Source of the DNA: Bacteroidales bacterium
Lineage (GTDB): Bacteria; Bacteroidota; Bacteroidia; Bacteroidales; Muribaculaceae
Direction: 5' to 3'
Length of the DNA: 64,000 nt
Assembly: GCA_014800685.1 (NCBI GenBank)
Contig: JAAVFQ010000008.1
Span: 62,001-126,000, forward strand
The notes beneath the pieces were generated by a model. That model searched no databases. It saw only the letters and a list, made by a program, of their open reading frames with translations, and was not told where the DNA came from. Of this stretch, positions 12,935-17,828 are shown piece by piece. The translations under genes were made by a program, and so were the position numbers. Position 1 is the stretch's first letter, and every line of letters begins with the position of its first letter.

Positions 12935-12977
12935 AGAGGGTGTGCCAAAATGAATTTCGACACACCCTCCGGTTTTT
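12935..12977. terminator. Intergenic terminator hairpin
   Basis: GAGGGTGTG...CACACCCTC then CGGTTTTT. Confidence 0.6.
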
Positions 12978-14502
12978 ATATCTGATGCGCGGGGCGCAGC
13001 AGGTCATTAACAGTCTTAACGGGATTAAACGTCTCTGCGGGCACCTCAACGAAAATAGTGTTCCAGTCAGACATGGCTCCATTCCAGAGTCCCGGGCGCT
13101 CCAAGGCCTTAATCTCCACGCCATCCACACTCTTTTCGCTTATGAAGCCTGTGGAACGGTCCACGTGGTCTGTAAGATGAAATTTCCGGCCTTCGAAGTC
13201 CTTTATGGCACAGACAAGATCTACCGGATTAAAATGGGTGGAGCGTCTGAAAATCTCCTCAATCCTCTTGTCGGAGGTGTCGAGCTGCACGCTTTCAAGA
13301 ATCTGGGGACTCACCGTGCCGTCGGGATTATATGCGAGGAAGGGACCACCGCCGGGCTCACCTTCATTTTTCACCATACCGCAGACTCGCATAGGCCTGT
13401 TGAGCTTGGCGAAGATATATGAGGCTACCTGCTCATCGGGCATCACGTCGCTCTTGTCATGCGTGATGCAGAGCACTTCACGGAGGAAGCGGAGCATTTC
13501 AGCCAGCTCCTCGTGCGAGGGAGTTCCTTTCTGGAGGCGACGGCAGTATTCATCCGCCTTTGTTTTGGCGCCCATGAGGATGCCTCCGGCTATCATCTTG
13601 AAACGGTTAGAGACTTCGCGGCGCTGTTCGGGCACCACATTGTCAATATTTTTGATGAAGACCACGTCGGCATCTATATCGTTAAGATTCTCAATTAGAG
13701 AGCCATGGCCGCCGGGACGGAAAAAGAGAGCGCCATCCTTGCGGAAGATTTTGCCATCTTGCGTGACGCATATAGTATCAGTAGAGGGCTTCTGCACGGA
13801 AGTGCCCACTTCGAGCTTCACGTCATATTTCTTACCGACGCCACCTGCTGCCTCCTCTATCTTCATTTTGACCAGCGGGAGATGATCGTCGCTGACCGTA
13901 AAGTGAACTCTCACCTTGCCGTTGCGGTCTTTAATAGTCTCAGCGCCCTCGGCAAGATGCTCTTCGAGAGGGGTGCAAGACGTTCCGGGCACTTTATGGA
14001 ACTGGAGAAGAGCCTTGGGGAGGCGGCCATAGTTGAGACCCTCTTTATTAAGGAGGGCGGCCACTATATCCTTATATCGTTTCTCCTCTATTAGAGTATA
14101 TATGCTCTTGCCGAAGAGAGTGAGGGTGACGAAGTTTAGTCTGGGATAGAATGCGAATTTCTCTATATTGTCAAAGAAAGCTCGCCTGAAGTCGGTATCG
14201 GGCTTATCCTTCTTTCCGTTGAGGAAAGCGTGAAGGTCCTTGAACATTCTTGAGGCCGCCCCGCTCGCGGGAACGAGTTTTACGGCAACTCCGCCGCTTT
14301 CAAGAAATTGATGCCATATCTCAATAGCCTTTTTCTGCATTTCGGCAGTGGGGCGCTTAATGCAATTCTCCACAGTGGCCTCTGCTTCTATATTAAGAAA
14401 GGGGAAGCCATTACGCAGGGCTGCCAGCTGGTCATCAATTTCAGTCTGAGAGATGCCGCGCTCGGCAAGTATTTCCAAGTCTTTCGGGGTCAAATCTGCC
14501 AT
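12976..14502 (-). CDS. DUF4301 family protein
   Basis: LVPASGAASRMFKDL, FRPGGHGSLIENLNDIDADVVFIKNIDNV (nucleotidyltransferase-like). Confidence 0.75.
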   Translation of the reverse strand: MADLTPKDLEILAERGISQTEIDDQLAALRNGFPFLNIEAEATVENCIKRPTAEMQKKAIEIWHQFLESGGVAVKLVPASGAASRMFKDLHAFLNGKKDKPDTDFRRAFFDNIEKFAFYPRLNFVTLTLFGKSIYTLIEEKRYKDIVAALLNKEGLNYGRLPKALLQFHKVPGTSCTPLEEHLAEGAETIKDRNGKVRVHFTVSDDHLPLVKMKIEEAAGGVGKKYDVKLEVGTSVQKPSTDTICVTQDGKIFRKDGALFFRPGGHGSLIENLNDIDADVVFIKNIDNVVPEQRREVSNRFKMIAGGILMGAKTKADEYCRRLQKGTPSHEELAEMLRFLREVLCITHDKSDVMPDEQVASYIFAKLNRPMRVCGMVKNEGEPGGGPFLAYNPDGTVSPQILESVQLDTSDKRIEEIFRRSTHFNPVDLVCAIKDFEGRKFHLTDHVDRSTGFISEKSVDGVEIKALERPGLWNGAMSDWNTIFVEVPAETFNPVKTVNDLLRPAHQI

Positions 14503-16627: not shown

Positions 16628-16635
16628 GGGAGAAG

Positions 16636-16720
16636 TACAGAAAGTGGGACTCGAACCCACACGACCCTTCCGGGTCAAAGGATTTTAAGTCCTTCGTGTC
16701 TACCATTCCACCATTTCTGC
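16636..16720 (-). tRNA. tRNA-Leu (anticodon TAA)
   Basis: GCAGAAATGGTGGAATGGTAGACACGAAGGACTTAAAATCCTT...GGGTTCGAGTCCCACTTTCTGTA; class II variable arm; CTTAAAA anticodon loop. Confidence 0.93.
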
Positions 16721-16996
16721 AACTCTTTGCGCCTGCAAAGATAGTAATAAAATCCCGTCCATGCAAATTTTATCACTCTTCTCACCAATATCTCACTGAG
16801 GCTCTGCGTATTACTGAAACATTTTTACTTTTTTTTAACAATGAGACTTCCCGATTGTTATACTAATAGATGCGCACCTCTCGCCCGCCATCTATGCGTG
16901 AAGTCCTGACGCAACTTTTAGGAACCCGCTTTTTCAATAATCACGCAATTACTACACAATAAATCCTGAACAACAACACAATAACAACATACCGCT

Positions 16997-17110
16997 ATGT
17001 GGAAATTTGACTTCTGGTCGCTGGTGTTCTACACACTGACCTTCTTCCTCTTTGTTTATCCGGTAGCCTTATGGGCCCGCTGGTTCACCCGTAAATGGAA
17101 TAGAAAATGA
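16997..17110 (+). CDS. Single-TM microprotein 1 (37 aa)
   Basis: MWKFDFWSLVFYTLTFFLFVYPVALWARWFTRKWNRK*; stop overlaps next start (ATGATG). Confidence 0.6.
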   Translation: MWKFDFWSLVFYTLTFFLFVYPVALWARWFTRKWNRK

Positions 17111-17265
17111 TGACAGAAACTCTATGGACCGATTTCGCGGAGATACTGCTCGCAGTCACCGACCGCATCAACACTCCCGCCTGCTGGACAGTATGGGGCT
17201 TCTGGCTGATAGTCACATGGGGACTAAATTTATATTTCGCAAGAAAGAAAGGGGGTGAGAGATGA
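17107..17265 (+). CDS. Single-TM microprotein 2 (52 aa)
   Basis: MMTETLWTDFAEILLAVTDRINTPACWTVWGFWLIVTWGLNLYFARKKGGER*; ATGA overlaps on both sides. Confidence 0.6.
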   Translation: MMTETLWTDFAEILLAVTDRINTPACWTVWGFWLIVTWGLNLYFARKKGGER

Positions 17266-17387
17266 CCGCACAGGAATGCTTCACGCTCCTCTTCTTCTAC
17301 TTCAGTGGCATCTGCACCCTCCTGGGACTGCTGACTCTTGCCGCCTGCATACTCTTCGCTCTCCGCCGGCTCTTCCGCCACCGCTGA
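17262..17387 (+). CDS. Single-TM microprotein 3 (41 aa)
   Basis: MTAQECFTLLFFYFSGICTLLGLLTLAACILFALRRLFRHR*; start overlaps previous stop (ATGA). Confidence 0.6.
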   Translation: MTAQECFTLLFFYFSGICTLLGLLTLAACILFALRRLFRHR

Positions 17388-17408
17388 GTGCCGCTTTTAC
17401 GATATATT

Positions 17409-17443
17409 AACGGCACCGTGCCATAAGTTGGCACGGTGCCGTT
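17409..17443 (+). promoter_or_regulatory. Perfect 15-bp inverted repeat (hairpin, 5-nt loop)
   Basis: AACGGCACCGTGCCA TAAGT TGGCACGGTGCCGTT. Confidence 0.8.
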
Positions 17444-17516
17444 CGTAATTTTGCATCATCGGAAAGGAGTCCGCACCCTCCGCCGCCAAAACAAAACAAG
17501 AAAAACATCACCGATT

Positions 17517-17828
17517 ATGCAGAGAAAAAAGAGATTCAACCCCGGCGACAGAATTTATACGCGCGTGATACTTCAGGGACGACAGGTGGCAGAATATGTG
17601 TTTGATTGCGTCTCGGGAATGTCTGAGCTCATCACAGCACTCCGCTATCGAACACGGGAGCTTCGCGGACTGGCCAGCATCTACGTGCGCAATATGACGG
17701 CCGGCTGGAGCATGGAGCAGCCACTGATGCTCTATCCGGGCCGTTATCCTCAGGGGAGCTCTCCCCAGACCGGAGCCTCACATCCCGCACCCGCTCCGGC
17801 AGCTTATCGCCGCTATATGGACTATTGA
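17517..17828 (+). CDS. Conserved-looking hypothetical protein (103 aa from internal ATG)
   Basis: MQRKKRFNPGDRIYTRVILQGRQVAEYVFDCVSGMSELITALRYRTRELRGLASIYVRNMTAGWSMEQPLMLY; ATG 64 bp after a TAATTTTG box. Confidence 0.55.
   Translation: MQRKKRFNPGDRIYTRVILQGRQVAEYVFDCVSGMSELITALRYRTRELRGLASIYVRNMTAGWSMEQPLMLYPGRYPQGSSPQTGASHPAPAPAAYRRYMDY

What the first reader, a model, noticed from the sequence alone, without database searches (positions are those of the whole stretch)
16997..17387. Tricistronic operon of three single-TM microproteins missed by the ORF track
Three consecutive ORFs of 37, 52 and 41 codons are chained by start/stop overlaps (ATGATG at 17107, ATGA at 17262). Each has one Trp/Phe/Leu-rich TM segment followed by a basic tail (WARWFTRKWNRK; YFARKKGGER; ALRRLFRHR), predicting C-terminus in the cytoplasm. 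Three translationally coupled small ORFs of the same topology in different frames are unlikely by chance. They could be accessory subunits of a membrane complex, a sensor modulator (a LytS/LytTR pair is next door) or a toxin-like set. I recognise no family.
Basis: partly seen in the sequence, partly recalled or inferred. Interest (0 to 1): 0.75.

Follow-up and report, generated by a model that had tools for sequence, protein, structure and literature searches.

The report
Orphan operon of three membrane microproteins
A gut-type Bacteroidales genome carries three tiny overlapping genes, each predicted to make one membrane-spanning peptide with a positively charged inner tail; they look like real genes but have no detectable relatives anywhere we searched, so their job is unknown.

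Summary
Three ATG ORFs (37, 52 and 41 codons; 16997-17387, + strand) are chained by ATGA overlaps. Each has one strong membrane span and a basic C-terminal tail. By in-silico tests they are very probably real genes: this is the only three-ORF transmembrane chain in 2.10 Mb of its genome, none arose in 56.8 Mb of simulated sequence, its summed codon score beats 99.75% of simulated chains, and ORF1 has a gene-like A-rich start. ORF2 is the weakest by codon usage. ORF3 lacks its own start context, as expected of a coupled cistron.

The cassette is an orphan. No convincing relative was found in 111 congeneric, 397 family or 394 order genomes, nor in phage, plasmid or family libraries. The same search does find a true 48-aa membrane protein in congeners. 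Three congeners keep the flanking tRNA-Leu/103-aa-gene junction with only about 120-230 bases between, so the extra ~610 bp are best read as a gain.

The proposed link to the neighbouring LytS/LytTR pair is not supported. The best reading is a recently gained operon making a small hetero-oligomeric membrane assembly. Its biochemical role is inferred, not shown, and selection could not be tested.

The parts
16776..16996 (+). AT-rich (40% GC) leader of the cassette: presumed promoter/5' UTR, with a TTAACA-18-TATACT sigma70-like site (16835-16864) overlapping a 7-bp inverted repeat TAACAAT-N11-ATTGTTA (16836-16860); no Bacteroides-type TAnnTTTG box
   Evidence: promoter function is inferred only
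16997..17110 (+). ORF1, 37 aa, MWKFDFWSLVFYTLTFFLFVYPVALWARWFTRKWNRK; one TM span, basic tail
   Evidence: codon score 78th percentile of in-frame gene segments; start context 99.6th percentile of random ATGs
17107..17265 (+). ORF2, 52 aa; predicted amphipathic helix 2-21, then TM helix 24-50, basic tail; 5 Trp; starts in ATGATG over the ORF1 stop
   Evidence: (single-sequence AlphaFold2, mean pLDDT 89.5); codon score only 14th percentile of genes
17262..17387 (+). ORF3, 41 aa; one TM span, tail ALRRLFRHR; ATGA overlap with the ORF2 stop
   Evidence: (50th percentile of genes); weak own start context, as expected of a coupled cistron
17409..17443 (+). perfect 15-bp inverted repeat, 5-nt loop, -33.8 kcal/mol for the 66-nt stretch (z -8.2): probable terminator; its right arm lies in the promoter region of the 103-aa gene
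17446..17453 (+). TAATTTTG (-7-type box) of the downstream 103-aa gene, conserved in G051 and G076 (TAACTTTG in G034); the cassette lies upstream of it
16635..16720 (-). tRNA-Leu(TAA), left flank; its promoter box TATCTTTG lies at 16743 (- strand)
17517..17828 (+). 103-aa conserved gene of unknown function, right flank; kept beside tRNA-Leu in G034, G051 and G076

Best explanation
Three genuine microprotein genes form one operon, gained in this lineage as ~610 bp (about 16,780-17,390) between the tRNA-Leu promoter and the promoter of the 103-aa gene. One transcript starts in the AT-rich leader and probably ends at the hairpin 17409-17443. Ribosomes initiate at the A-rich ORF1 start and re-initiate at the two ATGA overlaps, so the peptides are made together in linked amounts. 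Each inserts N-out/C-in as a single span with a cationic tail in the cytoplasm. The most likely product is a small hetero-oligomeric inner-membrane assembly that docks on, and tunes, a larger membrane enzyme or transporter, in the manner of other single-span accessory microproteins. Shown computationally: gene-likeness of the chain, overlaps, spans, charge pattern, absence from relatives. Inferred: expression, coupling, insertion, mutual assembly, partner and function.
For: Unique 3-chain of TM ORFs in the genome and none in 56.8 Mb simulated. Codon score, leader A content and Trp count all exceptional versus 2825 null chains and versus the 27 other three-ORF chains of the genome. ORF1 and ORF3 codon usage gene-like. 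ORF1 start context at the 92nd percentile of real gene starts and 99.6th of random ATGs, while ORF3's own context is poor, fitting coupling; A-rich upstream positions are positive determinants in Bacteroidetes (PMC6847099). TM spans and tail charges. ORF2 modelled alone folds as helix-turn-TM helix with pLDDT 89.5. Strong hairpin just after ORF3. Flanks without the cassette in relatives whose MatE is 82-86% identical.
Against: No homologue, so no evidence of purifying selection on any frame. ORF2 codon usage is weak. No canonical Bacteroides promoter box upstream. The T-run after the hairpin is poor. Nothing identifies a partner, and neighbouring genes do not co-occur with the cassette. No expression data.
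Confidence: 0.45

Rival explanations
1. Translated proto-genes: the ORFs arose de novo in the lineage from extra intergenic DNA, insert in the membrane, and have little or no dedicated function yet.
For: Orphan status in all collections searched and lineage-restricted locus. A 'TM-first' path for new genes from thymine-rich DNA was proposed in yeast (PMC7005711).
Against: Host-like codon usage in ORF1 and ORF3, gene-like ORF1 start, neat ATGA-type overlaps and uniform topology are more order than fresh non-coding DNA should show. The ORF region is 52% GC, unlike the AT-rich leader.
Confidence: 0.2
2. Toxin-like or membrane-permeabilising set (type I toxin-like, holin-like or multi-peptide bacteriocin-like).
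For: Size, single span, cationic tail and intergenic location resemble small hydrophobic toxins (general knowledge); a lineage-restricted cassette fits a selfish element.
Against: No PADLOC, PHROGs (best E 0.051), NCBIfam or Pfam match. No TAnnTTTG antisense promoter inside the cassette. No immunity, export or antitoxin gene in the insert. Toxin sets are rarely three coupled cistrons (general knowledge).
Confidence: 0.15
3. Remnant or domesticated coat-protein module of a filamentous phage (inovirus).
For: Inovirus structural proteins are 30-90 aa with one TMD (PMC6813254). ORF2 has the coat-like plan of an acidic amphipathic helix, turn, TM helix and basic tail. Overlapping small coat genes with N-out/C-in topology are known from Ff phages (general knowledge).
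Against: No pI/Zot ATPase over the cut-off in the genome (best 13.7 vs 20.3 bits). No phage gene family nearby. No hit in phage records and no fold match in viral or PDB libraries, though short helical models seldom score.
Confidence: 0.05
4. Chance ORFs in non-coding or regulatory DNA.
For: No conservation; ORF2 codon score ambiguous.
Against: Rarity and combined gene-like signals.
Confidence: 0.1
5. Decayed remnant of one larger three-span membrane gene, broken by frameshifts.
For: Three spans in three frames, one after another.
Against: Concatenated 130-aa protein has no Pfam hit and no convincing hit in relatives. Each break carries an in-place ATG overlap, and the charge pattern repeats per ORF.
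Confidence: 0.05

Closest known systems
Single-span accessory microproteins of membrane complexes (CydX of cytochrome bd, KdpF, AcrZ, MgrB; the psbE-F-L-J row of photosystem II as an operon of such subunits)
   Same: 30-60 aa, one TM helix; in the psb case several in one operon
   Different: No sequence match; those sit beside their partner genes or have known partners, while this cassette stands alone between a tRNA and an unrelated conserved gene (comparison from general knowledge)
Inovirus small coat proteins (pVII/pIX/pVIII type)
   Same: Size, N-out/C-in plan, basic tail, overlapping cistrons; ORF2 helix-turn-TM helix
   Different: No pI ATPase over the cut-off in the genome; no phage sequence or fold match
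Type I toxins and other small hydrophobic toxins
   Same: Short, single-span, cationic end
   Different: No antisense RNA promoter found, three coupled cistrons, no family match
De novo transmembrane proto-genes (PMC7005711) and orphan small genes of E. coli O157:H7 (PMC4765031, PMC5597208)
   Same: Lineage-restricted, short; membrane-prone in the yeast case
   Different: Ordered three-gene chain with largely host-like codon usage

Membership tests
Single-span accessory microprotein (as a kind, not a homologous family) | Under about 60 aa with one TM helix | tested here: met
Single-span accessory microprotein (as a kind, not a homologous family) | Gene beside, or co-occurring with, the partner membrane complex | tested here: not met
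   LytS/LytTR and MatE occur in relatives without the cassette. Not decisive: some such peptides are encoded far from their partner
Single-span accessory microprotein (as a kind, not a homologous family) | Physical association with a larger membrane protein | not testable with these tools
   needs co-purification
Inovirus (filamentous phage) module | pI-like (Zot) morphogenesis ATPase, the only universal marker (PMC6813254) | tested here: not met
   best 13.7 bits, cut-off 20.3
Inovirus (filamentous phage) module | Short structural proteins, 30-90 aa, one TMD | tested here: met
Inovirus (filamentous phage) module | Sequence relation to known phage proteins | tested here: not met
   Viral-contig scans failed technically
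Type I toxin-antitoxin | Small hydrophobic peptide | tested here: met
Type I toxin-antitoxin | Antisense RNA against the toxin mRNA | tested here: inconclusive
   no TAnnTTTG box on the - strand within the cassette; other promoter types not excluded
Type I toxin-antitoxin | Growth arrest on expression | not testable with these tools
   needs a bench test
Any Pfam, NCBIfam, PHROGs or PADLOC family | Profile match | tested here: not met
   (best E 0.051)

The most novel reading that the evidence does not exclude
A previously undescribed, lineage-gained three-peptide membrane system: three co-translated single-span microproteins that assemble with each other into a defined hetero-oligomer (channel, scaffold or coat-like structure) with no relation to any known family.
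Probability: 0.2. Interest if true: 0.65.

Novelty: new variant of a known kind. Interest (0 to 1): 0.4.

Why it matters
If translated, this is a compact natural case of a whole operon made only of orphan single-span microproteins, gained at a mappable site with empty sites in relatives. That would allow a direct test of how new membrane protein assemblies enter a genome, and it shows that complete operons of sub-60-codon genes in Bacteroidales may go unannotated.

Tried and rejected
Weak hits of the concatenated protein in family and order genomes (E 1e-4 to 1e-1) were inspected for a sample with short open frames (L072, L077, L238, L246, L251, L252, L256). None shows a matching chain of small ORFs. 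A true 48-aa TM control gives the same kind of noise, 36-52% matches mostly in ~500-aa frames down to E 5e-4. The idea that 'acgcaactttt' at 16910 is a recurrent sigma-factor site was dropped, since other copies are mostly inside genes. A Shine-Dalgarno reading of AAGGGGG before ORF3 was dropped because Bacteroidia ribosomes do not recognise such sequences (PMC9976891, abstract). tRNA-Leu neighbourhoods of 30 genomes were checked for similar inserts; of these only the own genome, G034, G051 and G076 keep the tRNA-Leu/103-aa junction, and the latter three are empty. Scans of viral contigs failed. The ORF2 scan of genome contigs found no relative, but it needs exact 8-residue stretches.

Full report
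Observation. The three ORFs are present exactly as described: 16997-17110, 17107-17265 and 17262-17387 on the + strand, with ATGATG and ATGA junctions. Octanol-scale spans are strong in all three (-15.6, -14.7, -13.0 for 19 residues) and each C-terminal flank carries +3 to +5, against 0, -3 and -1 on the N side, so N-out/C-in is expected. ORF3 has no Trp; ORF1 and ORF2 have five each.

Is it chance? 112 pieces covering 2.10 Mb of the window's 2.13-Mb genome were collected and scanned. Demanding three ATG ORFs of 30-90 codons, overlaps or gaps of -8 to +3, and a TM-like span in each gives one chain in the genome, this one, and none in 56.8 Mb of order-2 Markov sequence. Without the TM demand there are 28 chains in the genome; this one ranks first in synonymous-codon score (+7.3; next +3.4), leader A content (0.47; next 0.35) and Trp count (10; next 7), and most of the others lie over long genes. 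Of 2825 simulated chains 0.25% reach the codon score and none the A content. The criteria were chosen after seeing the case, so these figures are indicative.

Per ORF the support differs. Codon scores: ORF1 78th percentile of gene segments, ORF3 50th, ORF2 14th. Start context by a weight matrix from 974 gene starts: ORF1 92nd percentile of genes and 99.6th of random ATGs; ORF2 43rd and 94th; ORF3 8th and 52nd. A strong first start and weaker later ones fit translation by coupling. In the Bacteroidetes member Flavobacterium johnsoniae, adenines at -3, -6, -12 and -13 promote initiation in place of Shine-Dalgarno sequences (PMC6847099).

Homology. None of the three has a Pfam, NCBIfam or PADLOC match, and PHROGs gives only E 0.051 for ORF2. 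The 130-aa concatenate has no Pfam match. PDB sequence searches give nothing for ORF2 and ORF3 and only chance-level KcsA matches for ORF1 (E 0.81 or worse). ORF2 was searched in all 111 held congeners and the concatenate in 397 family and 394 order genomes; only the own genome matches convincingly. Phage and plasmid records: none. As a positive control, a genuine 48-aa single-TM protein of the same genome was found in three congeners at 83-94% identity, and its chance matches reach E 5e-4 in long frames, the same kind as the weak hits here. Viral-contig scans failed technically and metagenome contigs were not open, so those sources are untested.

Locus history. In G034 and G051, whose MatE is 82% and 86% identical to the window's, MatE, tRNA-Leu and the 103-aa gene are in the same order but only about 120-180 bases separate tRNA and gene. 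In G076, whose 103-aa protein is 44% identical, the gap is about 226 bases. Alignment shows the tRNA promoter kept to about 16,780, and the 103-aa gene's promoter region alignable from about 17,390. The extra ~610 bp thus hold leader plus ORFs, and three empty sites favour gain over loss, though repeated loss is not excluded. Source unknown: the DNA matches nothing else in the own genome beyond trivial repeats, and GC of the ORFs (52%) equals that of the window.

Neighbours. Nearby genes are ordinary: diaminopimelate dehydrogenase, peptide deformylase, MATE exporter, LytTR regulator, LytS-like kinase, a DltB-like acyltransferase, RuvX, Rel. The LytTR homologue occurs in 49 of 111 congeners, and G034 has the pair in place without the cassette, so there is no sign of a functional link. 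A probable terminator hairpin (15 bp; 66-nt stretch -33.8 kcal/mol, z -8.2) follows ORF3, although its T-run is poor. Upstream there is no TAnnTTTG box (consensus in PMC7366714), only a TTAACA-18-TATACT site overlapping a perfect 7-bp inverted repeat that has no other perfect copy in the genome.

Mechanism. ORF2 modelled alone gives helix 2-21, a turn at 22-23 and helix 24-50 with mean pLDDT 89.5; the first helix is mildly amphipathic (shuffle p 0.049). No fold match. I infer a surface helix plus TM helix, with ORF1 and ORF3 as simple spans, co-produced and most likely assembling together on or beside a larger inner-membrane protein. This is the most ordinary job of such peptides; nothing here shows the partner. 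Toxin-like action, translated proto-genes and a filamentous-phage coat remnant remain possible; the last loses ground because the genome has no pI/Zot ATPase over the cut-off, the universal inovirus marker (PMC6813254).

Verdict. The finding is real as an observation and very probably a real, orphan operon. Its function is open, the LytS/LytTR idea is not supported, and selection could not be tested.

Noticed in passing
window 17517-17828: 103-aa protein (GDRIYTRV...AEYVFDC...GMSELITALRYRTRxLRGLAxIYIRN) belongs to a conserved family with no Pfam, NCBIfam, PHROGs or PADLOC match, found in several congeners and beside tRNA-Leu in G000, G034, G051 and G076.
   Followed up: partly
window 17483-17495: Leader motif CCGCCAAAACAAA upstream of the 103-aa gene is kept in G034 and G076 and recurs once more in the own genome at L200 (- strand, 14882), next to a tRNA-like stretch; role unknown.
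   Followed up: partly
window 17409-17443: The right arm of the hairpin aligns with ancestral promoter DNA of the 103-aa gene (TGGCACTGTG in G034), so the terminator-like repeat may have grown out of that promoter.
   Followed up: partly
window 16836-16860: Perfect inverted repeat TAACAAT-N11-ATTGTTA over a sigma70-like promoter; no other perfect copy in 2.10 Mb, possible operator.
   Followed up: partly
L149 10577-10910 (counted on the - strand): Another two-gene chain of small TM ORFs (48 and 61 aa); the first has 83-94% identical copies in three congeners, so it is a real small membrane protein.
   Followed up: partly
window 12976-14502: 508-aa protein without an NCBIfam match at 1e-5, conserved at about 72% identity in G034 and G051.
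   Followed up: no
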